Positions 2,770 through 41,156 of a stretch of DNA of 64,000 nt are shown piece by piece; positions within the stretch are counted from its first letter, which is position 1, and every line of letters starts with the position of its first letter. The DNA comes from Arthrobacter sp. AK04 (GTDB lineage Bacteria > Actinomycetota > Actinomycetes > Actinomycetales > Micrococcaceae). The notes under the pieces are model-generated. The model worked only from the letters and a program-made list of their open reading frames with translations, was not told the origin of the DNA and made no database searches. The position numbers and the translations under genes were made by a program. The stretch is taken from positions 1 to 64,000 of the forward strand of contig NZ_JAJOMC010000021.1 in NCBI RefSeq assembly GCF_021129155.1. Reading direction: 5' to 3'.

Positions 2770-2772
2770 GGG

Positions 2773-3018
2773 CTAGCTTCCGACCGTATCCATCGCCTGG
2801 TTGAACATCGACTCCAGCGCCGGTCCGGCAAGCGCCAGCAGCGCCGCCACCAGCACAGCCGACATTAGGGTGATCATGACCCATCCAGGCACATCTCCCC
2901 TTTCATTGTGGTTGTCATTGTGGTTCCCACCGCGACGGACTCCCGCGCAAAGGGCAGTGCCCAGGGCGGTGTTCACAACAAGGAGCAGGGATGCCCAGCG
3001 AGTTCCCATCATTTTCAT
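2773..3018 (-). CDS. Small prepilin-like membrane protein of the Tad operon
   Basis: An 81-residue product starting at the ATG at 3016-3018, which has a purine-rich stretch (GGACGGGA) just upstream. A longer open frame reaches upstream to 3432 but is antisense-frame noise over tadC. The protein has an N-terminal hydrophobic stretch (residues 8-26), a polar GGNHNDNHNERG linker, and a second hydrophobic helix (about 46-65) after RGDVPGW. Position between tadC and tadE is where the major Flp pilin or a DUF4244-type protein sits in related loci. The helix after RGD resembles a mature pilin helix but lacks the usual Glu at +5, so pilin identity is inference. Confidence 0.6.
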   Translation of the reverse strand: MKMMGTRWASLLLVVNTALGTALCAGVRRGGNHNDNHNERGDVPGWVMITLMSAVLVAALLALAGPALESMFNQAMDTVGS

Positions 3019-3080
3019 TTCCCGTCCTATTCCTGGTTCGGTTCTTCGATCGATATGCATTCCGGCTCCACTGGTTGTCC

Positions 3081-4022
3081 CTAAAACCCCAGGTTGATGG
3101 CCGCGAGCCCTGGGAAAACGGCAAACACCACAGTCAGCGGGAGCACGCCGAAAACAAGCGGCACCATCATGGCGATTTCCTTCTTGCCTGCAGCTTCCAT
3201 AAGGTCGCGTTTGGCGATATCCCGCACGTCCTGGGCTTGGGCACGCAGGACATCCGCCAGGGGCGTGCCTCTCTGGACAGCGACAATGATGCCGTCGACG
3301 AACCTCACCAGAGGGGCCAGGTCGGTCCGTGCCGAGAACTCCTGCAATGCCTGCACCAGGGGCTTGCCCGCCCGGGTTTCGGCAAGAATGTCCGCGAACT
3401 CCTTGGTGAGCTCCCCCTTGGCGCTGCGACAAACCCGGTCGAGGGCTCCGGTGGCGCTCTCCCCTGCGCTGACGGCGAGCGCCATCAGTTCAGCCAGGCT
3501 CGGAAACTCCGCCATCATCCTCGATTCACGCCGTTTGACCTGTACGCCAAGCCAATAGTCCCGCAGCATGAAGCCGCCCACAGCACTGCCCAGGACGGCG
3601 ACCGCGGCGAGCAGTGGGTTGAACCTCCCGGCTGCGGCTCCCAGGGCAGTGACGCCAAGGGCGGCCACGAATCCGGCAGCGGCCCACAGTAGCTGCTCGG
3701 CCCGGAAGTCGATGGAGGTCTTGGTTCTTCCCGCCTGCGACAGCCGTCGTGCGGTCGCTCCGGGCGATGGATTCAGCCTCCCCAATGCCGCCATGCCGTC
3801 CCGGATCACCGGACGCAAAATCCTTTCAAGCGGACCGAAAGGCGTCAGGTTGGCCTCCCCCAGGCTCAAGAGCCGGGATTCAAGGTTTTGGGACTTCAAC
3901 TGCGGCTCAATGCGTTCTGCCAGGGTGGTGGCGCGCATCAACGGCGATCTGAAGATGACGAGCCACAGACCGGTCCCCAGGACAATCCCGCAGGCGACGG
4001 CGGCAGGAGATATGTCGATCAC
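3081..4022 (-). CDS. tadC: TadC-like type II secretion system F protein
   Basis: A 313-residue polytopic inner-membrane platform protein of the T2SSF/GspF family. Such proteins couple the secretion ATPase to pilin polymerisation. An N-terminal membrane helix (about 8-25) precedes a cytoplasmic T2SSF domain rich in charged helices (the MAEFPSLAELMALAVSAG region), and hydrophobic segments lie in the middle and at the C-terminus. It overlaps the tadB gene by 4 bases. The pair TadB/TadC is the standard membrane platform of Tad systems. Confidence 0.88.
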   Translation of the reverse strand: MIDISPAAVACGIVLGTGLWLVIFRSPLMRATTLAERIEPQLKSQNLESRLLSLGEANLTPFGPLERILRPVIRDGMAALGRLNPSPGATARRLSQAGRTKTSIDFRAEQLLWAAAGFVAALGVTALGAAAGRFNPLLAAVAVLGSAVGGFMLRDYWLGVQVKRRESRMMAEFPSLAELMALAVSAGESATGALDRVCRSAKGELTKEFADILAETRAGKPLVQALQEFSARTDLAPLVRFVDGIIVAVQRGTPLADVLRAQAQDVRDIAKRDLMEAAGKKEIAMMVPLVFGVLPLTVVFAVFPGLAAINLGF

Positions 4023-4876
4023 CTGAGCACCCGCTCATCCTGGGGCAGGGCCCCAATCCTTAGCATGATGGAGTAGCAGACCAGCGAAATTACCAGGCCA
4101 CCAAGCAGGACTGCTGCACCCATGGCGGTGTTGTATGCCTGCACCGCCTCCGGTCTTGTTGCCAGCAGGAGCATAACGATCCACGGGGCAGCGACCGCAA
4201 GGCGTGCGGCGTTGACGGTCCAGGACTGCCTGGCCTCCAGTTCACTTCGGGTGCGGGCACTCTCGCGGAGGAACTCAGCCAACGTGCCGAGCAACTTTCC
4301 CAGGTCCGAGCCTCCAACTTCGCGGGTCAGCCGAAGGGCTTCGACTATACGGTCGGCGACCGGGTCTGCGAGCCTGTGCTTAAGTTTGTTGAGCGAGGCG
4401 TCGAACTGGCCTCCGGCGCGGTAGTCGGCACCGAACTCCCGGAATACGTGACGAAGCTCGTCAGGCCCCTTTTCCCCCAGCTGAATGAGGGCTTCCGGCA
4501 GCGGCAGGCCGGCACGTATGGCGGAGCGGAGGTGATCAACGACGTCGGGCCACAACTGGCGCAACAACGCGCTTCTCTTTTTTGCCCTCCAGCGCAGGAT
4601 GCTGATGGGAAGCCATGCAGCAAACAGCGCGAAGCAACAGGCGATAGGCCAGGAACGGCTGACAGCGTAAAACACCAATGCCACAAAGAGCCCCAGCCCC
4701 GCGCAGGTGCCGATGAGGCCACCCGGGGATACTTTGTCGACGCCGGCGGAGGCGAGAAGGTCGGCCAGGCGGCTTACCTTCGGCGCCATGGGGCGCTGCT
4801 CAGGTGTCTCCCAGAAGGACCACCAGATGAGGAAGAGGCCCGTCCCGGCGCCGATACCCAGCAAAGCCGACGTCAT
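4019..4876 (-). CDS. tadB: TadB-like type II secretion system F protein
   Basis: A 285-residue T2SSF-domain membrane protein. One hydrophobic segment starts the protein, a pair of hydrophobic segments lies at about 55-90, the cytoplasmic F domain runs about 105-225 (LPLPEALIQLGEKGPDEL and REVGGSDLGKLLGTLAEFL), and two membrane helices finish it. It overlaps tadA and tadC by 4 bases each, so the three are translationally coupled. It is the partner of TadC in the platform that receives energy from the TadA ATPase. Confidence 0.88.
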   Translation of the reverse strand: MTSALLGIGAGTGLFLIWWSFWETPEQRPMAPKVSRLADLLASAGVDKVSPGGLIGTCAGLGLFVALVFYAVSRSWPIACCFALFAAWLPISILRWRAKKRSALLRQLWPDVVDHLRSAIRAGLPLPEALIQLGEKGPDELRHVFREFGADYRAGGQFDASLNKLKHRLADPVADRIVEALRLTREVGGSDLGKLLGTLAEFLRESARTRSELEARQSWTVNAARLAVAAPWIVMLLLATRPEAVQAYNTAMGAAVLLGGLVISLVCYSIMLRIGALPQDERVLR

Positions 4877-6096
4877 CGCGGATCCAGCAGCGCCGCGACG
4901 TCGTACCCTGCCCGGCTGAACTTTTCCGCGGCCGGCATCGAGCTGGCGCGTGCCTGAAGGGTACCGTCCACCATCGCAAAGACGGGAGACGACTCGATAA
5001 TGCCGTTCTCCACTCGCCGGCCCAACGAGAGGATTTCGGTGACCTCCCTACGGCCGTTGGCCTTCCGGCTGCAATGAACCACAAGGTCGATACAGGATGC
5101 GACCGTTGGGACGACAAAGGCTGACGAGATGTTCTCGCCTGCGAGCAAGGGCAGCGTGCAGATCTTGGTGACTGCGTCATGCGCCGAGTTCGCGTGTACG
5201 GTGCACATGCCTGGCAAACCACTATTCAGAGCGATGAGCATGTCCAGGCTCTCAGCTTCACGGACTTCCCCCACCACCAGGCGGTCCGGGCGCATGCGGA
5301 GCGCCTCCTTGACCAGGCGCCGCAACGGAATTTCGCCCTCCCCCTCCAGGTTCGGTTGGCGGCATTGGAGTCCTACGACATCGCGCAGGGGGAACTGCAG
5401 TTCGAAGATTTCCTCAACGGTGATCACCCGCTCCCGGCTGCCTATGCTCGCAGCCAGGCAGTTGAGCATTGTGGTTTTGCCGGCCTGGGTTGCGCCTGAA
5501 ACCAGGATGTTGAGGCCGCTGGAAACGGCTGCACCCAGAAAACGGGCGGACTGCGGCGTCAGCGTGCCCAGCTCGACAAGATGTTCAAGGCGGCTGGCCT
5601 TGACCACGAATTTCCGGATGTTGACTGCCCAGTACTTGCGGGTCACATCCGGGATGACCACGTGGAGCCTCGACCCGTCAGGAAGCGCTGCGTCCACAAA
5701 CGGAGAGGACATGTCCAGCCGGCGGCCGGAGCTTTTCAGCATCCGCTCAACCAGGTCCCGGACCTGCTGCTCAGTCAGGCTTAGCGAGGTCAGCTCGGAT
5801 TCACCGTTCCGGGCCACGAAGATCTCGTTGGGAGCGTTCAGCCAGATCTCTTCGATGGTTGGATCGTCCAGCAGCGGCTGTAGGACGCCGAAACCAGCGA
5901 CGGCGTCAAAGAGGAATCTGCGGGCCGCGTCCAGGGGCCCGAGGGGAGGGAGCGGACCCAAAAGCGCCCGCTCATCGTAGTCCGTCACCGCCGCCTCTAC
6001 CAGGCGGCGGACCTCGCCGGCCTGATGAAGCGGATCAAGCCCTCGACGACGGATAAGCTCGCGGACTTCATCCTCGACTATTCCCAGCGCGTCCAT
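4873..6096 (-). CDS. tadA: TadA/CpaF-type secretion ATPase
   Basis: Hexameric VirB11/CpaF-like ATPase that powers Tad pilus assembly. The 407-residue product has an N-terminal domain (1-165), Walker A GATQAGKT (201-208), an acidic EE pair (228-229), Walker B-like DRLVVGEVR (271-279) and the histidine box TVHANS (299-304). The start is the ATG at 6094-6096 with GGGGAACG just upstream. An in-frame extension to 6225 has no family similarity and covers the promoter region. This is the first gene of the leftward Tad operon. In mycobacteria a CpaE-like gene precedes tadA; here that gene is about 35 kb away (41157-42464). Confidence 0.93.
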   Translation of the reverse strand: MDALGIVEDEVRELIRRRGLDPLHQAGEVRRLVEAAVTDYDERALLGPLPPLGPLDAARRFLFDAVAGFGVLQPLLDDPTIEEIWLNAPNEIFVARNGESELTSLSLTEQQVRDLVERMLKSSGRRLDMSSPFVDAALPDGSRLHVVIPDVTRKYWAVNIRKFVVKASRLEHLVELGTLTPQSARFLGAAVSSGLNILVSGATQAGKTTMLNCLAASIGSRERVITVEEIFELQFPLRDVVGLQCRQPNLEGEGEIPLRRLVKEALRMRPDRLVVGEVREAESLDMLIALNSGLPGMCTVHANSAHDAVTKICTLPLLAGENISSAFVVPTVASCIDLVVHCSRKANGRREVTEILSLGRRVENGIIESSPVFAMVDGTLQARASSMPAAEKFSRAGYDVAALLDPR

Positions 6097-6382
6097 ACGT
6101 TCCCCAATACAACTGCCGCCCCCGGCGGAGGCAGTGCAACTGGGATAAAGACTAGGGACCGGACAAGAAGCTGCCAAGTCATAAACATTGTCTGTGGATA
6201 AACGCAGGATTGTCACAGGATCCACACATGCACCACCAGCACCTCTGTTGTCACCAGCACCATGGTGCTATGGTGAGCGCGTTAAGTGTCAAATCCCTGT
6301 TCGGCTGATTCCTGGGGGAACCATCCGAAACAGCAACCCAGATGAGGACTCGCAGGAGCGCCTCATTGTTTCCGGAGCCAAT
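6097..6382. promoter_or_regulatory. Divergent control region of tadA and the GH25 gene
   Basis: This 286-base gap must hold both promoters. It contains a perfect 14-bp palindrome AGCACCATGGTGCT at 6256-6269, a direct repeat CACCAGCACC at 6234-6243 and 6252-6261 (18-bp period), and two GTCAC boxes at 6212 and 6250. The GTCAC boxes loosely recall MtrA sites, though MtrA binding is speculation. From about 6276 to 6365 the GH25 leader has three stretches that recall, in order, parts of the c-di-AMP (ydaO/yuaA) riboswitch: GCGCGTTAAGTG, GGGGGAACCA, and CCGAAACAGC followed by CTCGCAGG. The GGGGUGAAU element is missing and the segment is too short for a normal copy. Confidence 0.4.
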
Positions 6383-19454: not shown

Positions 19455-19467
19455 AGAAGCGCGAGCA

Positions 19468-26069: not shown

Positions 26070-29400
<3,331 letters not shown>

Positions 29401-29493: not shown

Positions 29494-32400
29494 ATGACGC
29501 TTCATTGCACCCTGGTCCGAGGCCCCCGGTCACCACAGGCCGGACCGCCCCTGGAACTCACCTTAGCGGCTCCGCCCGGCACGTCCGGTGAGGCAATCCA
29601 CGCTGAGCTTGTCAGGACGTTCGGCACGGGAGCTGTCTATGTTGACGGGGAGGACCTGTGTTCCCTGAGCCTCGGAACGGCGCCCTTGATCGCGGGCGCC
29701 GTCCTGGTTGACGGCGGAAGCCAGCCCGCTGGCCGGAAAGCCCGGCGGTGGCCTGCCTCCGACCCCGGTGCCCCCATCGCGTTGGCCATTCACAGCGGCG
29801 CCGGAGCCGGCACCCTGATCCCCCTGCAGCGCGGCAACTACACCATCGGCAGAAGTAATACCCGCATCGTCATCCCGGATCCTGAGCTTTCCCGGGAACA
29901 CGCCCGCCTGGTAGTCACCGAAAAGGACATCATGATCGTTGATCTGGGCAGTGCCAATGGCACGTACATCGACGGCGAGCGGGTACGCCATGCGCTGATC
30001 TCCACGGCTACCGCAATCCGCTGTGGCAGTTCAACGATGTCCCTGGTCTTTCTCAATGGCCCGGACAAAGCACTTGCCGACGCCGGCGCTTCAGTCCAGG
30101 ATCCCCTCACCGTTGCGGGCCGTCCGGAGTCCGGCAACCGTGGAATCCTTGTTCTCACCGCAGTGCTCCCCCTGGTCATCGGCGTGGGACTCGCCATCCT
30201 CACTGGCATGTGGATGTTCCTGGCTTTTGCGGTGGTTTCGGCGGTATCCGTGCTCATCCCGCTGGCTGCCGGGCGCCGGCAGCGGCGCGAATTCGCCAGC
30301 AGGATCAGCGCCGCCGTCAAGGCGGACCAGGAGCGGCGGAAGCGCGCCGGCCCGTCACTGGCGCTGCTGGTGCTCGCTGCAGCCCAGTGCCAGGTTGCGC
30401 CTTCGGCAGCTCCCGGGGAGGGCAGGGTGTGGCTGCGGCTTGGACTGGCTCCGCAGGCCGCCAACCTGAAGATCGAATCGGGGAACGCTGTGCAGGCGAT
30501 TCCGTCCGCCGGAGAGATGCCCGTGATGTTGAACCCGGCGCACAGCCCCACCACCTTGCGGGGACCCCGGACAGTGCTGGCGGGAATGCTGCGGTCACTT
30601 GTTATGCAACTCGCCGGGTACCCAGGAGGCTGCAGGGCACGCATTGTGATCTGCGGCCGTCCGGGAACACTTCCCCTCCCTGCCCGCTTTCTCCGCAGCG
30701 TCACGCTGGCCGCCTCCCCGGAGTCGTGCCTGCGCACGCTCACGGAAGGTTTCAATCACGACCATGATCACGGCGTGCTCCTGCTCACGTCCGCCTTGGG
30801 CGAGGATGAGGCAGTGCTGCTCGAGCAGGCGGCTCAACGGGGCTGGCAAGTGCTGAAGTTTCGTTCGGCTGACAGCCCTCCCGGTATTGCCGACGTAGAA
30901 CTCACCGAAAAGGAGTCGCGCCTGCGCGAGCCAGGCAGGGAAACCACGTTCATCCCGGACCTCGCGCCTGAGGATGTGTTCAGCAGCTACTGCCGGCAAC
31001 TGGCGGCCTCCCCGCAGCGGCTGGACCGCGCGGAGAACCAAGTTCCCTCGGTCTGCACCCTTGACGGACTGCTGCCTCCCTCCCCCGCGCACACTGCTGC
31101 CCGCTGGAACTCCCCTGCGCGCGCGGGCACTCTGGCAGTCCCCCTGGGCCTCCAGGCCACGGGTCCCTTGGTCCTGGACCTGCAAAGCGATGGTCCGCAC
31201 GTGCTGGTTGCAGGAACAACTGGATCAGGAAAGTCCGAACTGCTGCGCAGCCTGGTGCTGGCACTTGCCTTGGCCCATCCGCCGGACCGCGTCAATTTTC
31301 TCTTCATTGACTTTAAAGGCGGTGCCGGGCTCGGTCCCATGGACGGGCTGGTCCACTGCGTCGGCGTCCTGACCGATCTGTCCGCCCATGAGCTCGAACG
31401 TACGCTCACCTCGCTCAAGGCCGAGATTAGGCTCCGCGAGCAAGCCCTCGCTGCGGCACAGGTGCCGGACCTTGCAGCCTACCGAACCTCTCCTGCCTCC
31501 CGGGACAACCCACTTCCCCACTTGGTGATCGTCATCGACGAGTTCCGCATGCTCGTGGACGATGCGCCCGAAGTACTCCGAGAACTGATGCGCATCGCCT
31601 CAATCGGCCGCTCGCTTGGCCTGCACCTGGTTATGGCCACCCAGCGGCCCCAGGGCGCACTGACCGCAGATATCCGGGCAAACGTCACCTCAAGCATCGC
31701 GCTCCGCGTTCAATCCGATATGGAGTCGCACGATATCCTCCACAGCAACGCTGCTGCAGGAATCAGCCTCAACACCCCGGGGCGTGCCTTCATCGCCCGG
31801 GGTACGGAGCCGCCTGTGGAGTTTCAAGCTGCATCAACCGGGATACCTGCCCCGGACGGGGACGCGGAAGAAGTAAAGGTGCAGCTCGCCGCCGACTTCC
31901 TCTCTACCTGCGGCCAAGACAGCCCGGCACCTGCAGGTGCCACGGATCGGACTCCCGCGCAGGCAGCAGCCCCTCTTGTCGCTATGGTTCGGCATCTTTG
32001 GACCACACAGGCGGGTCCAGCACCGCGGCTTCCGGTGGCCCCTCCGCTGCCGCTGAAGCCCGCCCGCCCCGAATCCGGCATGGCCGTGTTGCACCCGGGG
32101 GACGGCGGGACAAAGGGTCCAGCCATTGCATTGGGCCTGCTCGATATGCCCCATCGGCAGGAAATCAGGTCCTTGGTCTGGTGCCCGTCAACGGACGGGC
32201 ATCTTGCCTTGATAGGAGGTCCCCTGTCCGGAGCATCCGAAGCCCTCGAACTGGCAGTCCATGGCATGGCAGACAATGCGGAAGAAACCCACTTGTACTT
32301 CCTGGATGCGGCTGCGGCCTTCCGCAGGCTGGCAGCGCACCCGCGCACCGGAGCCCACGCCGGTCTGCATGAGCTGCGGCGGAGCGTCCGCGTCCTCGAG

Positions 32401-33645
32401 CGGCTGGGCCAGGAGCTGGCCACCCGGCTAAGCCGGACTGACCACGGGGGTGTTCCGCTGGTTCTCGCCATCTCCGGATGGGGTTCCTGGGTGTCGGCTT
32501 TTCGGGCCGGCCCGTTCGCCTGGGCCGAGGAAGTAATGCTGGATCTTGTCCGCGACGGAATGAGGGCCGGAATTACTGTCATCATCTCCGGGGAGCGGGA
32601 ACTCGTTACCGCCAGGTTCTGCGGATCGATTCCCAACCGCATCTATTTCCCTGCCGGTTCAAACGAGGACAGCAGGATAGCGTGGCCAAAGCTGCCTGCC
32701 ACAGCAGCGGTCAGGGGCAGAGGCGCAGCGTTTGGCTCCATCGCCTGCGGCACCGCATCCGTGTGCCAGCTTTACGAGCCCGCTCCTGACACTTCCGGGC
32801 CCCACGGGACCGGCAGGGCCGGGACCCAGCAGTCCCTGGCGCGGCCCTTTCGGATTGAGCCGCTGCCCGTTCGGGTGACAATCGCGGAGGTCAGGGCCGC
32901 AGCCCATGTAACTCAAGGGACCGGGACGGGACGGGGACAGCGTGCCGCTGGAAATGTTGTGGCCCAGACAAAGACTGCAGGAGCCGCAAAAGACGGGCCC
33001 AGGCAAGCCGGGGAGAGCGCGCCGGAAGGAATATCCGCGCCCGCACCGGCCCTGGTTGCCGGACAGCGCCCTGCGGGCGGTGCATCCGTGCCGCGGGATG
33101 TGCTTCTCGGTGTCGGTGGCGACGAGCTGGACCCCGTCTTTGTGCATGTGCCGCCAGGGGGCACCTTTGCCGTCCTGGGAGGACCCGGATCAGGGAAAAC
33201 GAACTTCCTGCGGGCCCTGCAGGCGCTGAACCCGGGTACAGACGCTTGGGTTGACCCTGGCACACTGAGCGACCCCGCTGAGTTTTGGAAGGGAGCCCTG
33301 GAGAAGGCGCGGCAGGGAACCCTGCCAGGATCAGCGGCGCTGTTGGTGGACGACATCGACCTGATGGCTGCCGGTACCCTCAGGGATCTCTCCGAGCTGC
33401 ACAGCCTGGGCCACGGAGTGGTCTTCACGGCCAGCTACAGTCCTTTGCTGATCCAGCGCGTTCCGCTGGCGATGGATGCCCGGGCCGCCGGGAGGGGGCT
33501 CCTGCTAGCTCCGCGATCGATGTCGGAGGGCGACCTTTTCGGAATCCGCTTCGAGGTAGAACCCAATCCTCCCCCGGGCAGGAGTGTTCTGATTGCCCGC
33601 GGGAAGTCCTCGGCGGTGCAGGTGGCCTGGGCCGGGACGCCCTGA
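29494..33645 (+). CDS. FHA-FtsK/SpoIIIE ATPase of EccC/EssC type
   Basis: A 1383-residue membrane-anchored motor with type VII secretion coupling-ATPase architecture. Residues 1-100 form a small N-terminal domain. An FHA domain runs about 115-185 (YTIGRSNTRIVI, SREHA, SANGTYI) and should bind phosphothreonine. Two membrane helices lie at about 218-262. ATPase domain 1 has canonical Walker A GTTGSGKS near 575 and Walker B VIVIDEF near 678. Domain 2 near 905 is degenerate (GGPLSGAS, no Lys). Domain 3 has GGPGSGKT near 1229 and ALLVDDID. EccC/EssC proteins have three such domains. EssC usually has two FHA domains; one is clear here. No WXG100, EccB/D/E or mycosin gene is adjacent, so the substrate and partners are unknown. 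Confidence 0.85.
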   Translation: MTLHCTLVRGPRSPQAGPPLELTLAAPPGTSGEAIHAELVRTFGTGAVYVDGEDLCSLSLGTAPLIAGAVLVDGGSQPAGRKARRWPASDPGAPIALAIHSGAGAGTLIPLQRGNYTIGRSNTRIVIPDPELSREHARLVVTEKDIMIVDLGSANGTYIDGERVRHALISTATAIRCGSSTMSLVFLNGPDKALADAGASVQDPLTVAGRPESGNRGILVLTAVLPLVIGVGLAILTGMWMFLAFAVVSAVSVLIPLAAGRRQRREFASRISAAVKADQERRKRAGPSLALLVLAAAQCQVAPSAAPGEGRVWLRLGLAPQAANLKIESGNAVQAIPSAGEMPVMLNPAHSPTTLRGPRTVLAGMLRSLVMQLAGYPGGCRARIVICGRPGTLPLPARFLRSVTLAASPESCLRTLTEGFNHDHDHGVLLLTSALGEDEAVLLEQAAQRGWQVLKFRSADSPPGIADVELTEKESRLREPGRETTFIPDLAPEDVFSSYCRQLAASPQRLDRAENQVPSVCTLDGLLPPSPAHTAARWNSPARAGTLAVPLGLQATGPLVLDLQSDGPHVLVAGTTGSGKSELLRSLVLALALAHPPDRVNFLFIDFKGGAGLGPMDGLVHCVGVLTDLSAHELERTLTSLKAEIRLREQALAAAQVPDLAAYRTSPASRDNPLPHLVIVIDEFRMLVDDAPEVLRELMRIASIGRSLGLHLVMATQRPQGALTADIRANVTSSIALRVQSDMESHDILHSNAAAGISLNTPGRAFIARGTEPPVEFQAASTGIPAPDGDAEEVKVQLAADFLSTCGQDSPAPAGATDRTPAQAAAPLVAMVRHLWTTQAGPAPRLPVAPPLPLKPARPESGMAVLHPGDGGTKGPAIALGLLDMPHRQEIRSLVWCPSTDGHLALIGGPLSGASEALELAVHGMADNAEETHLYFLDAAAAFRRLAAHPRTGAHAGLHELRRSVRVLERLGQELATRLSRTDHGGVPLVLAISGWGSWVSAFRAGPFAWAEEVMLDLVRDGMRAGITVIISGERELVTARFCGSIPNRIYFPAGSNEDSRIAWPKLPATAAVRGRGAAFGSIACGTASVCQLYEPAPDTSGPHGTGRAGTQQSLARPFRIEPLPVRVTIAEVRAAAHVTQGTGTGRGQRAAGNVVAQTKTAGAAKDGPRQAGESAPEGISAPAPALVAGQRPAGGASVPRDVLLGVGGDELDPVFVHVPPGGTFAVLGGPGSGKTNFLRALQALNPGTDAWVDPGTLSDPAEFWKGALEKARQGTLPGSAALLVDDIDLMAAGTLRDLSELHSLGHGVVFTASYSPLLIQRVPLAMDARAAGRGLLLAPRSMSEGDLFGIRFEVEPNPPPGRSVLIARGKSSAVQVAWAGTP

Positions 33646-33660
33646 TGCGACGGGGCCAGG

Positions 33661-34149
33661 TCATAATGCCGGGGTGGTACCTCCGGTGCGGGAGGCGTAG
33701 CTGATCACCTTGTTGTGGAACAGGAGCACGATTGCGGTGACCGCAGGAACCAGCATTGCGAGGCCGGCGGGCACGAGGCCGCTGCTGAGGGTTGGGAACC
33801 CGATGGTCAAAACGAACAGTTGCGCCACAAGGGCAGCGGCACGGGTCCAGCGGTACCCCCGGTAAAGGAAGGCGGCAACCGCGTACAGCCACGCAGAAAA
33901 GGCAAGCAATAAGCCTAAGGTGAATACAGCTCCCCAGAAGGACAGGACCGGGCTCCCGATTGCCAACTGGTACCCGTACCATCCGGCGACGAGCAGGAGT
34001 GCCGTGGCTTCCGCAGCTACCACCAGAGCCACGACAATAACGGCCGGCGGCCGGTGTCCATGGGCACTCCCGTCAGGCCGCTGCGGGCCCTGGCCGGGTT
34101 CTTGGGAGGAAGGCTGGGGGTTCGTTGGGTTTATCGGGGGTCTTGACAC
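33661..34149 (-). CDS. Small integral membrane protein
   Basis: A 162-residue protein with a Pro/Gln/Ser-rich N-terminal tail of about 33 residues and four membrane helices. It resembles a common actinobacterial uncharacterised membrane family, which I cannot name with certainty. The start is GTG at 34147-34149 after TAGGGTG. It converges on the EccC-like gene with 15 bases between and is divergent from whiB1. Its function is unknown. Confidence 0.7.
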   Translation of the reverse strand: MSRPPINPTNPQPSSQEPGQGPQRPDGSAHGHRPPAVIVVALVVAAEATALLLVAGWYGYQLAIGSPVLSFWGAVFTLGLLLAFSAWLYAVAAFLYRGYRWTRAAALVAQLFVLTIGFPTLSSGLVPAGLAMLVPAVTAIVLLFHNKVISYASRTGGTTPAL

Positions 34150-34320: not shown

Positions 34321-34379
34321 GTAGCTACTAGTGAATAATTTCACAAGGGCTCTTCCCAGAAATGGAGCAACTGATCAGC

Positions 34380-34628
34380 ATGGATTGGCGTAACCGCGCA
34401 GCGTGCCTCGAAAAGGACCCTGAACTCTTCTTCCCCGTCGGGAACACCGGGCCAGCCCTTCTGCAGATCGAAGAAGCAAAAAGCGTCTGCCGCCGCTGCC
34501 CCGTTGTGGATACTTGCCTGCAGTGGGCATTGGAATCGGGCCAGGACGCAGGCGTCTGGGGTGGCATGAGCGAAGACGAGCGCCGTGCGCTGAAGCGCCG
34601 CGCTGCACGCGCCCGCCGCGCTTCCTAG
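34380..34628 (+). CDS. whiB1: WhiB1-family iron-sulfur transcription regulator
   Basis: A small DNA-binding regulator with a nitric-oxide-sensitive [4Fe-4S] cluster. From the ATG at 34380 it has 82 residues with cysteines 9, 37, 40 and 46, the same positions as mycobacterial WhiB1. It also has DPELFFPVGNTGPA, the GVWGG turn, and a basic tail (KRRAARARRA). An upstream ATG at 34362 adds six residues and cannot be excluded. WhiB1 is generally essential and binds the sigma factor region 4. The neighbouring pdtaS gene converges on it, the same arrangement as Rv3219/Rv3220c. Its promoter region has a partial CRP-like sequence at 34202-34217. Confidence 0.96.
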   Translation: MDWRNRAACLEKDPELFFPVGNTGPALLQIEEAKSVCRRCPVVDTCLQWALESGQDAGVWGGMSEDERRALKRRAARARRAS

Positions 34629-34750: not shown

Positions 34751-36217
34751 CTACTTGCCGGCCAGGCTTATTCTTATCTCCACTGCGGTGCCGCCGCCTT
34801 CGCGCGGCCGCCACTGGATAGTCCCGCCCAGCTCGCTTGTCACCAAGGTCCGAACGATTTGAAGCCCAAGACCCTCAACATGAGGCGTATCCGGAAGCCC
34901 CACGCCGTCGTCGGCAATGGTGACTGTGAGTTCCTCACCATCATCCCCCTCGGACCGGTCAGCGATGAGCCAGACAGTCCCGGCCCTGCCTTCGAGCCCG
35001 TGCTCCACAGCGTTGGTCACCAGTTCATTGATGACCAGGGCCAGCGGGGTGGCAAGATCGCTCGGCAGCTCTCCGAAAGTGCCGGATCGTTCCGTCCGGA
35101 CCTGCTGCGAGGGTGAGGCGACTTCGGCCGACAGCCGGAACTGGCGCCCGATCAGCTCGTCGAAATCCACGCTCTGCGTGAGCCCCTGGGATAAAGTCTC
35201 GTGGACCAGCGCGATAGTGGCGACCCGGCGCATGGCCTGCTCCAGCCCCTGCTTTGCTTCGTCGCTGACCATCCGGCGGGACTGCATGCGCAGCAGCGCC
35301 GCGACAGTCTGGAGATTGTTCTTAACCCGGTGGTGGATCTCACGGATGGTTGCATCTTTGGTCACCAGCTCCATTTCACGCCGGCGAAGCTCCGACACAT
35401 CACGGCAAAGGACCAGCGCACCGAACCGTTGCTGCTCATCCCGCAACGGAATAGCGCGCAGTGACAGGCTCACTCCACGTGATTCAATTTCACTGCGCCA
35501 GGGCATCCGCCCGGTAACCACCAGGGGCAATGTCTCGTCCACCATCCGGCGGTCCTTGAGCAGGCTGGCGGTCACCTCGGCCAGTGAGCGGCCCTCCAAC
35601 GATTCCCCGTCACCCAGCCGCCTGAACGCCGAGACGCCGTTGGGGCTCGCGTACTGCACGATTCCCTCCGCATCCAGCCTGATGAGCCCGTCCCCTACGC
35701 GGGGTGCGCCGCGGCGGGAACCGGTGGGCGAGGCGAAGTCCGGCCACAGCCCCAGCGTGCCCATCCGCAGGAGGTCGTATGCGCACTGGCGGTACGTCAG
35801 TTCAAGGCGCGACGGCATCCGCGAGCTGGAGAGGTCCATATGGGTGGTGACCACGGCCAGCGTGCGCCCGTTGCGGACCATGGGAACGGCCTCCACGCGG
35901 AGGGCCATATCGCTGCTCCAATTGGTTTCACTGGAGCGCTCGATGGAACGGCTGCTCCAGGCCTTGTCCACAAGGGGCTGCAGGTCCGAGCGGATGCCCT
36001 CCCCCACGAAATCCCCGTGGAACACGGTGTGCGTGGTGGAGGGCCGCACGTGGGCGAGCGCCACGTAGCCAAGCTCGGGATGGGGGAACCACAGGGCCAG
36101 GTCGGCGAAAGCAAGGTCCGCAACCATTTGCCAGTCCCCCACCAGGAGGTGCAGCCACTCGGCATCGCCCGGCCCAAAATCAGCGTGTTCCCTGATAGGG
36201 TCCGTAAAGATTGCCAC
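34751..36217 (-). CDS. pdtaS: PdtaS-type sensor histidine kinase
   Basis: A 488-residue soluble kinase with no membrane helix. The N-terminal GAF domain covers about 10-150, a PAS domain about 175-275, then HisKA_2 with IREIHHRVKNNLQ (His295/His296), and the HATPase domain with NELVTNAVEH and DDGVGLP. In mycobacteria PdtaS phosphorylates PdtaR, an ANTAR RNA-binding antiterminator, and responds to ligands such as c-di-GMP and copper. GTG starts the gene behind GGAGG. No pdtaR is adjacent, as in M. tuberculosis. Confidence 0.93.
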   Translation of the reverse strand: MAIFTDPIREHADFGPGDAEWLHLLVGDWQMVADLAFADLALWFPHPELGYVALAHVRPSTTHTVFHGDFVGEGIRSDLQPLVDKAWSSRSIERSSETNWSSDMALRVEAVPMVRNGRTLAVVTTHMDLSSSRMPSRLELTYRQCAYDLLRMGTLGLWPDFASPTGSRRGAPRVGDGLIRLDAEGIVQYASPNGVSAFRRLGDGESLEGRSLAEVTASLLKDRRMVDETLPLVVTGRMPWRSEIESRGVSLSLRAIPLRDEQQRFGALVLCRDVSELRRREMELVTKDATIREIHHRVKNNLQTVAALLRMQSRRMVSDEAKQGLEQAMRRVATIALVHETLSQGLTQSVDFDELIGRQFRLSAEVASPSQQVRTERSGTFGELPSDLATPLALVINELVTNAVEHGLEGRAGTVWLIADRSEGDDGEELTVTIADDGVGLPDTPHVEGLGLQIVRTLVTSELGGTIQWRPREGGGTAVEIRISLAGK

Positions 36218-36245: not shown

Positions 36246-39200
36246 CTAGCGTCGGACGATTGACCTCAAGAGCCTCAATGCTACCGACAGTGAAGCCATA
36301 TCGTCGGCCTCCAGCGAATTCACCTCGTCGAACATGCTCTTGGCCCTGGTGAGCTGCTCGGCATTCCGCGCCTCCCAGTCCTTCAGCCGCGCCTCCGGCG
36401 AGTCAGCGGCGGCAGTGGCGTCCAGCACCGCCGTCGTCATGTCCGAAATGGTGGAGTACAGGTCATCCCGCAAGGCCGCCCTTGCCAGCGCCTGCCACCT
36501 GTCCTGCCGGGGCAGGCTGCTGATCCGCTCCAGCAGTGAATCGGCGTGGAACCGGTTGAAGACGGTGTAGTACACGGCCGCGATCTCCTCGACCGGGTCC
36601 TTGCGCACGTGGGCAATCTTGGCGATGTCGAGCAGCACAAAGCTTTCGAAAAGTTCTGCCCAACGCAGGGCAAGACCTTCCGGCAGCTCCCACTCGCGTG
36701 CGTTCTCCAGCCAGCTGGCCACACGTTCCCGGTCATCACCGCGCAGGTATTCCAGCAGGCGCCCCCGCATTGGCTCCATTACGGGTTTGAACTCGGAGAC
36801 CACGTCTGCGATGGGCCGCGACAGCGTTCCCTGTCCCAGGAGCCAGCGGACTGCCCGGTCCAGCAACCGCCTGATGTCCAGGTGGACGGTGCTCCAATGC
36901 TCTGTGGGGAAGGACGCCGGGAGGCTGTTCAGTTCCCCCACCATGGTGTCCAGATCGTAGACCTCCCTCAGCGCAACAAACGCCTTGGCCACGGCCACTT
37001 CACTGGCGGAGGTTTCCTCCATGACCCGGAAGGCGAACGTGATCCCGCCGAGGTTGATCATGTCGTTGGCGACCACCGTGGCGATGATTTCGCGGCGGAG
37101 CGGATGGGTGTCCAGTTCGGCGTCAAAGCGCTCGCGCAGCTGGGCCGGGAAGTAGGCGCGCAGGGTCTGCCTGAACCAGGGGTCATCGGCCAGGTCGCTT
37201 TCCCGCAGGGCCGTTGCCAGCTCGATCTTTGCGTAAGCGGCCAGCACCGAGAGCTCCGGAGACGTCAGCCCCTGCCCCTGCTGCAGCCTCTCGTGCAGGG
37301 CCTCCGTTGTGGGAAGCGCTTCGAGATCCCTCTTCAGGTCGGCTTTCTTCTCCAGCCAGTCCATCAGACGTTCGTAGCTGGGACTCCACTCGGCAACCCT
37401 GGTCCGGTCATTAAGCAGCAGGATGTTCTGGTCGATATTGTCTTCGAGCACCAGCCGGCCCACTTCGTCGGTCATTGATGCCAGGAAGCCAGCGCGCTCT
37501 TCCGGCGACAGCTTTCCAGCCGCCACCATCCGGTCCACGAAAATCTTGATGTTGACTTCATGGTCCGAGCAGTCAACGCCGGCAGAGTTGTCAATGGCGT
37601 CGGTGTTGAGGATGACGCCCTGCAGCGCTGCTTCAATGCGGCCGCGCTGTGTCATGCCGAGGTTTCCACCTTCGCCCACCACCTTGACGCGCAGGTCCCG
37701 ACCGTCGACGCGGATCGCGTCGTTCGCCTTGTCCCCGACCATGGCGTTGGTTTCGGTGCTCGCCTTGACGTACGTACCGATGCCGCCGTTGTACAACAGG
37801 TCCGCCGGGGCCAGAAGGATGGCGCGGAGGAGTTCGGGCGGGCTGAGCTCGGTTGTCTCAGCCGGCAGCCCCAGTGCAGCACGAACCTGGGCTGACACCG
37901 GGATTGATTTGGCCTGCCGGGCAAAGACGCCGCCACCCTCACTGATCAGCGACTTGTTGTAGTCGTCCCAGGAGGACCGCGACAGCTCGAACAACCGCTG
38001 CCGTTCCACGAACGAGGATTCCTCGTCGGGGTTGGGATCGAGGAAGATGTGCCGGTGGTCGAAGGCGGCGAGCAGGCGGATATGGCGGGATAGCAGCATG
38101 CCGTTGCCGAACACGTCTCCGGACATGTCACCCACGCCGACCACGGTGAATGGCTGTGTCTGCGTATCAAGGTCGAGCTCGCTGAAGTGGCGCTTCACCG
38201 ACTCCCAGGCGCCGCGGGCGGTGATGCCCATGGCTTTGTGGTCGTAACCCACGGAGCCGCCGGACGCGAACGCGTCCCCCAGCCAGAACCCATATTCATC
38301 AGCCAGGCCGTTGGCGATATCCGAGAATGTCGCCGTGCCCTTGTCGGCGGCCACTACGAGGTACGAATCGGCGTCGTCGTGCCGGACAACGTCCGACGGC
38401 GGCACAAGCCTTTCGTTGTCACCCTCAGTAATGAGGTTGTCGGTGATGTCCAGCAGGCCCCTGATAAAGGTCTTGTAGCTTTCGATTCCTTCCGCCATCC
38501 AGGCAGCGCGGTCGGCGGTGGGGTCCGGCAGCTGCTTGGCGAAGAACCCGCCTTTGGCGCCCGTCGGCACGATGACCGCGTTCTTGACAGTCTGTGCCTT
38601 CACCAGTCCGAGGATCTCGGTCCGGAAATCCTCGCGGCGGTCGGACCAGCGCAGCCCGCCGCGGGCCACCTTGCCGAAGCGGAGGTGGACGCCCTCAACC
38701 CGCGGCGAGTAGACCCAGATCTCGAACATGGGACGTGGGAAGGGCAGTCCCTCGATCTGTGATGGATCGAGCTTGAAGCTCAGGTGGGTTCTGTTCTGGT
38801 AGTAGTTCGTCCGGAGCGTCGCCTCGATCAGGTTGACGAACGTGCGCAGGACCCTGTCGGCGTCGAGCGTTGCCACCTTCTCGATGGACACTTCAAGATC
38901 CTTGCGGACGGAAGCCTGCGCCTCGGCCCGCTCGTCTTCGGAAAGGGACGGATCGAAGCGCGCCGCGAACAGCGCATTGAGCCCCTTGGTTACATGCGGG
39001 TTAGCCAGCAGGGTATCTGCCATGAACCCGAAGGAATTGGTGTTGCCCATCTGGCGCATGTACCGCGCGTAGGCCCGCAGCACGGTGACCTGCCGCCATT
39101 GCAGGCCCTCCCTCAGGACCAGGCGGTCGAAGCTGTCCGATTCGGCTGCGCCGGTAACTGCCGCGCCGAAGGAATCGGCCAGCAACTGCCCGGTTGAGAG

Positions 39201-41099
39201 TGGATCCACCTTGGCCGGGTACTTCAGGCCGAGGTCGTACAGGAAGAAGTCGCGGCTGTCCGCGGTTTCAATTTCAAAGGGCCGCTCGTCCAGGACTTCC
39301 AGGCCAAGGTTGTGGAAGTAGGGCAGAATCTGGCTGAGGCTCTTGGGTTCCAGCATGTAGAGCTTGACGCGGGCGTCTTCCTCCAGCGTCGCGCCCGCTC
39401 CTTCCGGGAGGTAAACGTGCACGCCGGGCCGCTCCTGCACGGCGCCTTCAGACCGTTCCGCGGCCGCGCCGTATTTCTCGAAGCGCGCAATGTCTTCGAG
39501 GGCGTCCTCGACTTCGTAGTCCACGCGGTAGCTGGCCGGGAAGGCCTCGGACCAGATGGCGGCAAGCTCCTTTGCCCCCGCAACGTCACCCTTCTCGCGC
39601 AACACCTCCGCGATGCCCTCGCTCCAGGACCGGGCGGCACGGACAAGGCGCTTCTCGAGCTCTACGGTATTCACGCCACTGAAGTCCGCATTCTTGGGCA
39701 GCCGGATGCGGAAGAACAGGCGCGCCAGCGCCGACTCCGTCATGCGCGCTTCGTAGTCGATGGAAACAGCCTGGAACGTTTCGCGGAGCTCCTGCTCGAT
39801 ACGGAGCCGGACGTTGGTGGTGTACCTGTCCCTGGGGAGGTACACCACGGCGGACATGAACCTGCCATAGATGTCCGGCCGGAGGAAAAGCCGGGTGCGG
39901 CGGCGCTCCTGCAGCTTCTGAATCCCAAGAGCCGTTGCGGCCAGGTCCTGGATCTCGATTTGGAACAGCTCGTCCCGCGGGTACGTCTCCAGGATTCCCA
40001 GCAGGTCCTTACCGGAATGGGAGTCCGGCGGAAAGCCTGCGCTCTTGAGCACCGCGTCCACCTTCTCCCGCACGATGGGGATATCCCGGACGGAGCCCGT
40101 GTAGGCACTGGTGGCAAAAAGTCCAATGAAGCGGCGCTCCCCATTGACGTTGCCCTCGGCATCGAAGCTCTTGACCCCGATGTAGTCCAGGTACGCCGAA
40201 CGGTGGACGGTCGACCTGGAGTTCGCCTTGGTGATGACCAGGGCCCGCTTTTCACGGGCTTTTTTCCGGCCGGTGTCTGTCAGGTGCTGGATGTGGGGCG
40301 AGTCCTCGGAATCCCGCAACAGGCCAAGGCCGCTGTTATCGCGCAGCTCCAGGACATCTTCACCGTCGACATTGACCAGGTCGTATTCCCGGTAACCAAG
40401 GAAGGTGAAGTTTCCATCGTCAAGCCAGCGCAGCAAGTCTTTCGCGTGCCGCAGTTCTGCGATTTGTGCAGGATGGGCGATCTGGTCCAGGCTTTCGGCG
40501 ATCTGGATGGCCTTCTGGCGCATCTTCGGCCAGTCCTCAACGGCGGCGCGGACATCCATAAGGACACGTTCAAGGCCCTCGAGAAGGGCAGCCTTTGCTT
40601 CCTTGGACACACGGTTGATCTCGACGGCAATCCAGGACTCCATGTGCGAGGAATCGCCGCCCTGGGCAATCAAGTGCGAAAGGCTGGGCATGGCAGCCGT
40701 GTCGCCGCTGGATATACCGAGGTGGGCGGGGACCCTGCTGACCTTGGCCAGCTGCCCGCTCTCCCGGTTGCGTGCCGCTACAAAAAGCGGGTGGATTACC
40801 AGCTTGATGGCGGCATGCTGCCGGACAAGCTCGGCATTCACGGAGTCGACCAGGAACGGCATGTCGTCCGTGACAACGAAGACGACGCTGCTGTCTTCCT
40901 CGTCCATGACGGCGATGTTCGCCTGTCCCCGCTGCCGGACCGAAGCAACCTTGCGGTGATAGTCCGCCCGCGCCACCATCACGTCCCGAGGGTAGGCCCG
41001 GGCGTCCTCTTCGGCTAGGTGCTGGTAGTAGTCCCCGATGAAACTCTCATCGCCTTCAATGGAAAGGGGCTGATCCTCCACGCTGGATCCAGACGACAT
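36246..41099 (-). CDS. gdh: NAD-specific glutamate dehydrogenase, large 180-kDa type
   Basis: Oxidative deamination of glutamate to 2-oxoglutarate with NAD. The 1617-residue protein matches the L-GDH180 class (Rv2476c type): a long N-terminal region with ACT-like regulatory segments, a central catalytic GDH domain with KVARGGLRWSDRREDF and VPTGAKGGF, then the Rossmann part with VVGVGDMSGDVFGNGM and VGEGGNLGMTQ, and a helical C-terminus. The start is the ATG at 41097-41099 with GGAGG nine bases upstream; the in-frame TTG two codons earlier is too close to it. In mycobacteria this enzyme is controlled by the FHA protein GarA. Transcription is monocistronic or follows the CpaE-like gene across 57 bases. 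Confidence 0.95.
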   Translation of the reverse strand: MSSGSSVEDQPLSIEGDESFIGDYYQHLAEEDARAYPRDVMVARADYHRKVASVRQRGQANIAVMDEEDSSVVFVVTDDMPFLVDSVNAELVRQHAAIKLVIHPLFVAARNRESGQLAKVSRVPAHLGISSGDTAAMPSLSHLIAQGGDSSHMESWIAVEINRVSKEAKAALLEGLERVLMDVRAAVEDWPKMRQKAIQIAESLDQIAHPAQIAELRHAKDLLRWLDDGNFTFLGYREYDLVNVDGEDVLELRDNSGLGLLRDSEDSPHIQHLTDTGRKKAREKRALVITKANSRSTVHRSAYLDYIGVKSFDAEGNVNGERRFIGLFATSAYTGSVRDIPIVREKVDAVLKSAGFPPDSHSGKDLLGILETYPRDELFQIEIQDLAATALGIQKLQERRRTRLFLRPDIYGRFMSAVVYLPRDRYTTNVRLRIEQELRETFQAVSIDYEARMTESALARLFFRIRLPKNADFSGVNTVELEKRLVRAARSWSEGIAEVLREKGDVAGAKELAAIWSEAFPASYRVDYEVEDALEDIARFEKYGAAAERSEGAVQERPGVHVYLPEGAGATLEEDARVKLYMLEPKSLSQILPYFHNLGLEVLDERPFEIETADSRDFFLYDLGLKYPAKVDPLSTGQLLADSFGAAVTGAAESDSFDRLVLREGLQWRQVTVLRAYARYMRQMGNTNSFGFMADTLLANPHVTKGLNALFAARFDPSLSEDERAEAQASVRKDLEVSIEKVATLDADRVLRTFVNLIEATLRTNYYQNRTHLSFKLDPSQIEGLPFPRPMFEIWVYSPRVEGVHLRFGKVARGGLRWSDRREDFRTEILGLVKAQTVKNAVIVPTGAKGGFFAKQLPDPTADRAAWMAEGIESYKTFIRGLLDITDNLITEGDNERLVPPSDVVRHDDADSYLVVAADKGTATFSDIANGLADEYGFWLGDAFASGGSVGYDHKAMGITARGAWESVKRHFSELDLDTQTQPFTVVGVGDMSGDVFGNGMLLSRHIRLLAAFDHRHIFLDPNPDEESSFVERQRLFELSRSSWDDYNKSLISEGGGVFARQAKSIPVSAQVRAALGLPAETTELSPPELLRAILLAPADLLYNGGIGTYVKASTETNAMVGDKANDAIRVDGRDLRVKVVGEGGNLGMTQRGRIEAALQGVILNTDAIDNSAGVDCSDHEVNIKIFVDRMVAAGKLSPEERAGFLASMTDEVGRLVLEDNIDQNILLLNDRTRVAEWSPSYERLMDWLEKKADLKRDLEALPTTEALHERLQQGQGLTSPELSVLAAYAKIELATALRESDLADDPWFRQTLRAYFPAQLRERFDAELDTHPLRREIIATVVANDMINLGGITFAFRVMEETSASEVAVAKAFVALREVYDLDTMVGELNSLPASFPTEHWSTVHLDIRRLLDRAVRWLLGQGTLSRPIADVVSEFKPVMEPMRGRLLEYLRGDDRERVASWLENAREWELPEGLALRWAELFESFVLLDIAKIAHVRKDPVEEIAAVYYTVFNRFHADSLLERISSLPRQDRWQALARAALRDDLYSTISDMTTAVLDATAAADSPEARLKDWEARNAEQLTRAKSMFDEVNSLEADDMASLSVALRLLRSIVRR

Positions 41100-41156
41100 C
41101 GACAAACGCCTCCATCACGAAATATTTGCTGCACCATTGCAACTCTTATGGCGAGC

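What the first reader, a model, noticed from the sequence alone, without database searches (positions are those of the whole stretch)
29494..33645. Orphan FHA-FtsK type VII secretion motor
The protein has an FHA domain, two membrane helices and three ATPase domains (first and third canonical, second without the Walker Lys). This is the architecture of EccC/EssC, yet no WXG100 substrate, EccB/D/E or mycosin is next to it. It lies between the galactan operon and whiB1. It may be a minimal T7-like exporter, possibly gated by threonine phosphorylation through the FHA domain, with substrates encoded elsewhere.
Basis: partly seen in the sequence, partly recalled or inferred. Interest (0 to 1): 0.62.

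Follow-up and report, generated by a model that had tools for sequence, protein, structure and literature searches.

The report
Orphan type VII secretion-type motor
An Arthrobacter-type bacterium carries a membrane ATPase built like the motor of the type VII protein-secretion machine but with none of the usual partner genes beside it; related bacteria keep it at the same spot, in several of them back to back with pilus genes, and it seems to carry in its own chain a ubiquitin-like piece that other type VII systems make as a separate protein.

Summary
Window 29494-33645 (+) encodes "A", a 1383-aa EccC/EssC-type motor: FHA domain, two helices, EccC stalk, three FtsK-like ATPase domains. The P-loop lysine is missing in domain 2 and present in domain 3, a swap derived in Micrococcaceae.

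A is orphan: no WXG100 in 17 Micrococcaceae loci or 12 others, no EccB in 73 genus-level genomes, no EssB in 119. It is kept in 70 of 72 congeners, cleanly deleted in G005, and fast-evolving under purifying selection.

The genome also holds four scattered WXG100 matches, a mycosin-like protease, and a second motor "B" in a T7SSd-like cluster (kinase, Fn3/Ig protein).

Two new points. (1) A's N-terminus is a predicted ubiquitin fold matching YukD/EccD domains (hhalign P 6.5e-6; 0 of 200 shuffles; weak for B); the T7SSd paper reports no ubiquitin-like partner. (2) In seven genomes of four other families A is divergent from and adjacent to tadA; in Arthrobacter a polysaccharide cluster lies between.

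Best reading: a second T7SS-type export motor, substrates in trans, FHA-gated. Secretion is inferred, not shown.

The parts
29494..33645 (+). Motor A: orphan EccC/TsdC-type FHA-FtsK membrane ATPase, 1383 aa
29494..29727 (+). N-terminal domain, residues 1-78, predicted ubiquitin-like beta-grasp (b1 2-9, b2 20-25, helix 32-43, b3 48-50, b4 53-54, b5 70-73)
   Evidence: AlphaFold2 model; hhalign against YukD/EccD-N domains; subthreshold ubiquitin hits; no Pfam hit
29764..30060 (+). FHA domain, residues 91-189, with GR, SRxH and NG residues
30139..30348 (+). Two long helices, residues 216-285, taken as the two membrane spans
   Evidence: hydropathy flags only 218-236
30421..31017 (+). EccC-type stalk/DUF (D0) domain, residues 310-508
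   Evidence: 8rin_A Z 18.0, 213 residues
31057..31863 (+). ATPase domain D1, residues 522-790; Walker A GTTGSGKSE at 31213-31239, Walker B and DEFR at 31522-31548
32104..32793 (+). ATPase-like domain D2, residues 871-1100; P-loop without Lys or Arg at 32215-32238
33076..33642 (+). ATPase domain D3, residues 1195-1383; P-loop GGPGSGKTN at 33178-33204
33661..34149 (-). Small multi-span membrane protein, convergent neighbour (162 aa); probably not a partner, since it stays in A-less G005
34362..34628 (+). whiB1-type regulator
   Evidence: PF02467 8.8e-28
34751..36217 (-). PdtaS-type histidine kinase, marker of the conserved locus
   Evidence: PF12282 4.8e-47
36246..41105 (-). Large NAD-glutamate dehydrogenase (name recalled), marker of the conserved locus
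   Evidence: synteny
28084..29370 (-). glf-type gene of the galactan operon (name recalled), divergent neighbour of A in most Micrococcaceae loci seen
4873..6225 (-). TadA-type pilus ATPase (T2SSE); divergent next-door neighbour of A in seven other-family genomes
   Evidence: PF00437 2.2e-41
1399..4876 (-). Rest of the tad pilus locus (tadB/C and TadE/G-like; names by position and recall)

Best explanation
A is a second, stand-alone type VII-type export motor. Shown by sequence, model and comparison: EccC/EssC architecture, an intact D1 P-loop and Walker B, a phosphothreonine-type FHA, orphan status conserved across families, purifying selection. Inferred: A forms an EccC-like hexamer in the membrane; its N-terminal ubiquitin-like domain does in cis what EccD or YukD/EsaB do in trans; the FHA domain binds a threonine-phosphorylated partner and switches the motor on; D1 hydrolyses ATP; D2 and D3 act as the substrate-recognition tail and export helical-hairpin (WXG100-type) proteins encoded elsewhere. 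In this genome the best candidate is the groEL-linked WXG100, which ends in a YxxxE signal (signal motif recalled).
For: Fold: 4nh0 (T. curvata EccC) is the best match over 736 residues; EccC3 and EccC5 membrane/DUF match; phmmer best hit 4nh0 3.1e-73. D1 Walker A and B kept in 29 of 29. FHA binding residues largely kept. Retained in 70 of 72 congeners, 68 of those 70 best rows without an internal stop; dN/dS 0.21-0.29 in four comparisons, with D1 lowest in all four. WXG100 matches in 72 of 72 congeners. The one genome of 119 without a WXG100 match (G074) also has no EccC-level motor hit, only one at 4e-19. A's homologue B belongs to a cluster with a kinase and, in G024, has a WXG100 gene 0.26 kb downstream; B-type motors are followed by WXG100 genes in L085, L087, L106, L107, L108 and L110. 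N-terminal domain matches YukD/EccD-N.
Against: No WXG100 gene was seen beside A (0 of 17 plus 0 of 12 loci). G005 lacks A yet keeps a strong WXG100 match and a B-level motor match, so that WXG100 does not need A for its retention. G083 and G102 have WXG100 matches but no EccC-level motor hit; both are fragmented (320 and 1060 contigs). A scores below the curated NCBIfam cut-offs (EssC 276 of 778, EccCa 211 of 509, EccCb 199 of 347). No secretion data. The substrate pocket of D3 was not tested.
Confidence: 0.45

Rival explanations
1. A works with the Tad (type IVc) pilus: it is an accessory motor or regulator of pilus assembly or of a pilus-linked export step, not a WXG100 exporter.
For: A and tadA are divergent neighbours in 7 of 12 loci outside Micrococcaceae whose flank lets one tell (four family codes: f5, f7, f15, f17); L140 shows the whole order prfB, tad, A, whiB1, PdtaS, GDH. 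No WXG100 there. Published T7SSg and T7SSh clusters in Bacillota also adjoin Tad genes and T7SSf has a TadZ-like protein (PMC11217815, passages).
Against: L169-L173 were fetched after one search had shown motor and tadA positions, mostly because these were close, so 7 of 12 is not an unbiased rate; among the 8 decidable loci fetched before, it is 4 of 8. The rest of the locus (whiB1, PdtaS, GDH) is equally syntenic, so adjacency may be inherited order. A TadA-type match is in 119 of 119 genomes (the weak ones may be other ATPases) and in G005, which lacks A. tadA lies about 8.5 kb (G116) and 13.5 kb (G104) from A, and 21-36 kb in the Arthrobacter examples I measured.
Confidence: 0.2
2. A is a partner or modulator of motor B: mixed complexes or competition for the same WXG100 substrates, tuning a T7SSd-like system.
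For: G000, G001, G003, G016 and G024 have both A and B; same domain order; profile-related N-terminal domains (A against B hhalign probability 92.6); B cluster supplies a kinase.
Against: A evolves much faster than B in the same three genome pairs (54-56% against 88-91% identity), unlike a co-assembled subunit; A and B are separate clades.
Confidence: 0.18
3. A is a DNA translocase or conjugation-type coupling protein of the FtsK/HerA superfamily.
For: D1 alone matches FtsK motor domains (2ius Z 31.0) and the TcpA coupling protein (6o1x Z 27.1).
Against: Whole-chain best match is EccC; membrane/DUF region is EccC-like; three ATPase-like domains. Relaxase or other conjugation genes were not searched for.
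Confidence: 0.06
4. A is a decaying relic of a former T7SS cluster.
For: Fast evolution; D2 P-loop lost in Micrococcaceae; G005 has lost it; best rows of G071 and G033 carry one internal stop, and G071 and G030 look split between frames.
Against: 68 of 70 best rows without a stop, invariant D1 motifs, dN/dS well below 1.
Confidence: 0.06

Closest known systems
T7SSd TsdC (Garrett, Higginson and Palmer 2024, PMC11217815; abstract, sections 7 and 9 and passages seen)
   Same: Actinomycetota; FHA-bearing EccC/EssC ATPase with conserved phosphothreonine motif; no YukD/EccD-N match in the genome. The B cluster here (Fn3/Ig protein, Ser/Thr kinase, FHA-FtsK; WXG100 after B in G024) closely resembles T7SSd. 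I did not compare sequences with the paper's TsdC.
   Different: A has no WXG100 beside it and sits at the tad-whiB1 locus; I find a predicted ubiquitin-like domain at its own N-terminus, whereas the paper reports no ubiquitin-like protein for T7SSd.
T7SSa EccC (Mycobacterium, T. curvata)
   Same: Two TM helices, DUF/D0 and three ATPase domains; best structural match.
   Different: M. tuberculosis EccC1-5 lack FHA (PMC9436818 passage); EccB is absent here; EccE was not tested.
T7SSb EssC/YukB
   Same: N-terminal FHA, TM, D0-D3.
   Different: EssC carries two FHA domains lacking phosphothreonine residues (PMC10765036 passage); here one canonical FHA preceded by a predicted ubiquitin-like fold; no EssB (0 of 119).
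T7SSg/T7SSh (Bacillota)
   Same: Loci adjoin Tad pilus genes.
   Different: Those ATPases lack FHA domains and sit with their own WXG100 and ubiquitin-like genes (PMC11217815 passages).
Second eccC of Actinotignum schaalii (PMC5720513, passages)
   Same: A second FtsK/SpoIIIE eccC reported away from the esx cluster.
   Different: No more is said of it in the passages I saw; I did not compare sequences.

Membership tests
EccC/EssC motor family | Membrane-anchored FtsK/SpoIIIE ATPase with D0 stalk and three tandem ATPase domains | tested here: met
EccC/EssC motor family | Reaches curated NCBIfam equivalog cut-offs (TIGR03928, TIGR03924, TIGR03925) | tested here: not met
   276 of 778, 211 of 509 and 199 of 347 bits: homologue, not an equivalog of EssC or EccC
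EccC/EssC motor family | Drives export of a WXG100 protein | not testable with these tools
   needs secretome or binding assay
T7SSa | EccB and EccD partners in the genome | tested here: not met
   EccB 0 of 73 genus-level genomes incl. own; YukD/EccD-N 0 in own, 3 of 72 congeners
T7SSa | EccE and mycosin partners | tested here: inconclusive
   EccE not searched; a mycosin-like protease exists elsewhere but scores 231.7 of 278.75 bits
T7SSb | EssB/YukC and YukD/EsaB | tested here: not met
   PF10140 0 of 119; PF08817 0 in own genome
T7SSd | FHA-bearing ATPase with conserved phosphothreonine motif (TsdC) | tested here: met
   exceptions among A rows: L064 and L170 lack the Asn, L057, L059 and L143 lack the following Gly
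T7SSd | WXG100 (TsdA) encoded with the ATPase | tested here: not met
   For A: 0 of 17 and 0 of 12 loci. For B in this genome no WXG100 adjacent; present in G024
T7SSd | Ser/Thr kinase (TsdD) and Ig-like TsdI encoded with the ATPase | tested here: inconclusive
   For A: the immediate neighbours are identified (glf type, 162-aa protein, whiB1, PdtaS, GDH) and none fits, but the whole window was not scanned against Pfam. For B: kinase and fn3/Big_9 protein present
T7SSd | TsdH single-TM protein | not tested
   too short and unstructured to recognise here
Ubiquitin-like (YukD/EccD-N) domain | Beta-grasp topology and profile similarity to YukD/EccD-N | tested here: met
   Model topology; A-family profile P 6.5e-6, probability 84.8, 0 of 200 shuffles. 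Weaker: mixed profile P 3.9e-4, probability 35; B-only P 0.014, 3 of 200 shuffles; no Pfam ubiquitin-family hit in 21 N-termini; PDB profile best hit E 0.11. The domain was not folded alone.

The most novel reading that the evidence does not exclude
A is the motor of an undescribed, ancient T7SS-like pathway of Micrococcales, distinct from T7SSa to T7SSj: the ubiquitin-like module that other systems supply as YukD or EccD is fused to the motor itself, the locus is tied to the Tad pilus by a shared divergent promoter region, and substrates are supplied in trans. By homology with B it would also explain why T7SSd appears to lack a ubiquitin-like component.
Probability: 0.3. Interest if true: 0.75.

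Novelty: new variant of a known kind. Interest (0 to 1): 0.55.

Why it matters
Work on type VII secretion has asked what the minimal machine is, and the 2024 survey of subtypes (PMC11217815) found it surprising that T7SSd lacks the otherwise near-universal ubiquitin-like part. Here is a conserved, dispensable motor family in genomes mostly without EccB, EssB or a YukD/EccD-N match, which appears to carry that part in its own chain. Arthrobacter strains would allow direct tests of whether motor plus WXG100 suffices for export. The neighbourhood of T7-type motors and Tad pili in two phyla also becomes testable.

Tried and rejected
Local loss of a cluster: rejected, because relatives in several other families have the same orphan at the same locus. 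Galactan operon as functional partner: judged unlikely, because tadA or other genes stand there outside Micrococcaceae and the galactan genes stay without A in G005. The convergent 162-aa membrane protein as partner: unlikely, because it is kept in G005 without A and other genes lie between it and A in Janibacter and L139. LXG substrates: no match in this genome. Pfam scan of the N-terminal domain: no ubiquitin family. The B-only N-terminal profile against YukD/EccD-N is weak (P 0.014, 3 of 200 shuffles reach it), so for B the ubiquitin-like reading rests on homology with A. Mycosin: 113 of 119 genomes match TIGR03921 but only 1 passes its cut-off. Families absent from the VIA-align tables were not used as evidence of absence. 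The D3 substrate pocket was not analysed.

Rows dropped or limits: L033 dropped from the 29-row motif count (start pattern missed it). One search kept the best 80 of 587 relatives and its pattern list was itself capped. Trees are quick LG+G4 searches with midpoint roots and no bootstrap; L143 falls weakly outside the A clade and L172 is a long branch. L135 and L173 end too close to the motor to decide tad adjacency. L169-L173 were fetched, mostly because motor and tadA positions were close, so tad-adjacency counts are biased upward. In L142 the called motor frame overlaps tadA, so no gap can be read. The genome search tables of matches were cut after about 150 rows. Gene calling in my scripts is a crude GC3 method and mis-called some genes (for example the groEL-linked WXG100). 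The DUF58 frame of the B cluster was not scanned. B was confirmed as such only in G000, G001, G003, G016 and G024; the family codes are unnamed, so breadth is given as codes.
Full report
WHAT IS THERE. The ORF at 29494-33645 (+) encodes a 1383-aa protein, here called A. Its nearest named relatives are Arthrobacter proteins. Pfam gives FHA at 116-170 (3.7e-14) and FtsK_SpoIIIE at 542-720 (1.1e-35). NCBIfam gives EssC, EccCa and EccCb models, all below their cut-offs. The best PDB sequence match is T. curvata EccC 4nh0, 3.1e-73. AlphaFold2 models of the two halves (31 sequences each, pLDDT 84.7 and 85.2) match EccC: residues 202-508 to EccC3 6sgx_F (Z 18.9, 280 aligned, rmsd 3.9) and 277-509 to the EccC5 DUF (8rin Z 18.0); the C-terminal half to 4nh0 (Z 34.8, 736 aligned, rmsd 5.5). 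So A has the EccC plan plus an FHA: FHA, two helices, D0/DUF, D1, D2, D3.

WALKER MOTIFS. In 29 aligned orthologues (30 loci, L033 dropped) D1 is canonical in 29, D2 has no Lys in 29, and D3 has Lys in 28. A wider alignment shows this is derived: in the 13 A-locus motors from outside Micrococcaceae D2 has K or R in 13 and D3 has K in 0 (R in 12, V in 1). In 16 Micrococcaceae rows D2 has K/R in 0 (L058 and L064 are gapped there) and D3 has K in 14 (R in 2). The secondary P-loop lysine has in effect moved from D2 to D3. After the D1 Walker B, 27 of 29 A rows read DEFR (L144 DEYR, L170 DEVR) and 20 of 20 B rows read DEFA.

N-TERMINAL DOMAIN. The model of residues 1-78 has strand 2-9, strand 20-25, helix 32-43, strands 48-50 and 53-54, a short helical turn and strand 70-73: the order of ubiquitin (comparison with ubiquitin from recall). 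A profile of 21 N-termini against the PDB gives redesigned ubiquitin (E 0.11), Sharpin (0.27) and RAD23B (0.55, 0.68) as its top four of six hits, none significant. Pfam gives no ubiquitin family for any of the 21. With A-type sequences alone (18) it gives P 6.5e-6, probability 84.8, 0 of 200 shuffles; with B-type alone (21) P 0.014, probability 3.2, and 3 of 200 shuffles; A against B probability 92.6. I read this as a ubiquitin-like domain in A, and by homology possibly in B.

ORPHAN STATUS. In 17 named loci (Arthrobacter, Pseudarthrobacter, Paenarthrobacter, Sinomonas, an uncultured Micrococcaceae) A lies beside the 162-aa membrane protein in 16 (L056 ends inside A), with PdtaS and GDH found in 15. 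A home-made WXG100 profile, built from this genome's four, finds nothing within the fetched flanks (up to 10 kb a side) of these 17, whereas it finds WXG100 genes just downstream of B-type motors in L085, L087, L106, L107, L108 and L110. In 12 A-locus stretches outside Micrococcaceae it finds none. EccB (PF05108) is in 5 of 119 genomes and in none of 73 genus-level genomes counting this one. YukC/EssB (PF10140) is in 0 of 119. YukD/EccD-N (PF08817) is in 9 of 119, 3 of them congeners, not this genome. LXG: no match in this genome. EccE was not searched.

WHAT ELSE THE GENOME HOLDS. WXG100 (PF06013): four matches, one over the cut-off. The strong one is a 95-aa protein near groEL (gene name recalled) whose tail holds YAQAE. 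The others begin 527-, 332- and 87-aa proteins and share a GADV start motif. A second motor B (1481 aa) is at C86 in a cluster with fn3/Big_9, MoxR, transglutaminase, RDD/zinc-ribbon and Ser/Thr kinase genes. This resembles the Bifidobacterium PFNA operon (PMC8430577, passages) and T7SSd (PMC11217815). In G024 a WXG100 with the same start motif follows B by 0.26 kb. A mycosin-like subtilase with signal peptide and C-terminal TM by hydropathy lies at C84 (231.7 bits, cut-off 278.75).

CONSERVATION. A is found in 70 of 72 congeners at 5.7e-180 or better; G005 and G027 (68% complete) have only B-level matches. 68 of these 70 best rows have no internal stop; G071 and G033 have one, and G071 and G030 look split between frames. 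In G005 the locus is intact but A is missing cleanly between glf and the 162-aa gene; a permissive search finds nothing better than E 0.18. A has the lowest median identity of the ten locus genes compared: 44% against 93% (PdtaS), 83% (GDH), 90% (glf) and 60% (162-aa protein). For three genome pairs A is 54-56% and B 88-91% identical. Nei-Gojobori dN/dS for A is 0.21-0.29 in four comparisons, with D1 the lowest domain in all four (0.10-0.13); FHA has the lowest dN in three of four but not always a low ratio. B gives 0.08 and 0.09, GDH 0.06, PdtaS 0.02, the 162-aa protein 0.18. So A is under purifying but relaxed or diversifying selection; the long linkers diverge fastest.

LOCUS HISTORY. A tree of 44 motors puts A with the motors of the whiB1/PdtaS locus of other families in one clade (20 rows, SH-aLRT 94; L143 weakly outside), apart from B and from EccD-linked EccCs. 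In seven genomes (G076 and G094 of f5; G078, G096 and G112 of f7; G118 of f15; G088 of f17) A is divergent from and adjacent to tadA, with about 0.05-0.37 kb between in six; in G096 the called frames overlap. In five further loci that can be judged it is not adjacent: G116 (about 8.5 kb), G104 (about 13.5 kb), G087 (L143), and the Janibacter loci L065 and L068. L169-L173 were fetched, mostly because the positions were close, so 7 of 12 is biased; of the 8 decidable loci fetched earlier 4 are adjacent (L137, L140, L142, L144). In the window tadA lies 23.3 kb from A, in G001 24 kb, in G016 36 kb, with a polysaccharide cluster between in the window and G001. L140 shows the whole order prfB (name recalled), tad, A, whiB1, PdtaS, GDH, which I take as ancestral; the galactan cluster then is an insertion. 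A TadA-type match is in 119 of 119 genomes (weak ones may be other ATPases), G005 included.

INTERPRETATION. I take A as a second, stand-alone T7SS-type motor, with FHA gating and a ubiquitin-like domain in cis, exporting WXG100-type substrates from elsewhere (confidence 0.45). For it: all 72 congeners have WXG100 matches, and G074, the one genome of 119 without, has no EccC-level motor. Against it: G005 keeps the strong WXG100 without A; G083 and G102 have WXG100 matches and no EccC-level motor hit, though both assemblies are fragmented. A role with the Tad pilus is the strongest rival (0.2): Garrett et al. report T7SSg and T7SSh beside Tad genes in Bacillota, and leave open whether this is coincidence. 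A modulating role on B comes next (0.18).

NOVELTY. T7SSd with FHA-bearing ATPase, kinase and Ig-like protein is published (PMC11217815), with the explicit remark that no ubiquitin-like protein was found. A. schaalii was noted to have a second eccC elsewhere (PMC5720513, passages). I found no description of the tad-whiB1 orphan motor or of a fused ubiquitin-like domain in the listings of ten paper searches or in the parts of the five papers I opened; this covers only the open-licence library, and supplements were not readable. Hence: new variant of a known kind.

Noticed in passing
L013 (contig C86 of the window's genome), 26-19878: T7SSd/PFNA-like cluster: fn3/Big_9 protein, MoxR, DUF58-like frame (recalled, not scanned), transglutaminase, RDD/zinc-ribbon, Ser/Thr kinase, FHA-FtsK motor B.
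   Followed up: partly
L015 (C67) about 10164-10451: Stand-alone 95-aa WXG100 with YAQAE in its tail between a histidine kinase and an rnhA-like gene, near groEL (names recalled); a PF06013 match of some kind occurs in 118 of 119 genomes.
   Followed up: partly
L018 9226-10809 and L016 14645-15643: WXG100 domains heading longer proteins (527 and 332 aa) scattered in the genome, candidate effectors.
   Followed up: no
L167 11161-12564: Mycosin-like subtilase (signal peptide, S8 domain, C-terminal TM), below the mycosin cut-off.
   Followed up: partly
L149, L150, L151: Three congeners (G028, G023, G033) carry an extra EccD-linked EccC system without an EccB match; the ATPase frame of L150 is in two pieces.
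   Followed up: no
L131, L132, L134: Three congeners (G034, G050, G008) have a Streptomyces-type FHA-FtsK motor beside a kinase-like gene.
   Followed up: no
L155, L157, L158: Another motor clade with WXG100 genes and very large proteins (up to 1993 aa) beside it, possible effectors.
   Followed up: no
L169 4776-5985 and L135 218-625: RsbW-like anti-sigma frames (names recalled), with a sigma-factor-like frame in L169, near motor A in two families.
   Followed up: no
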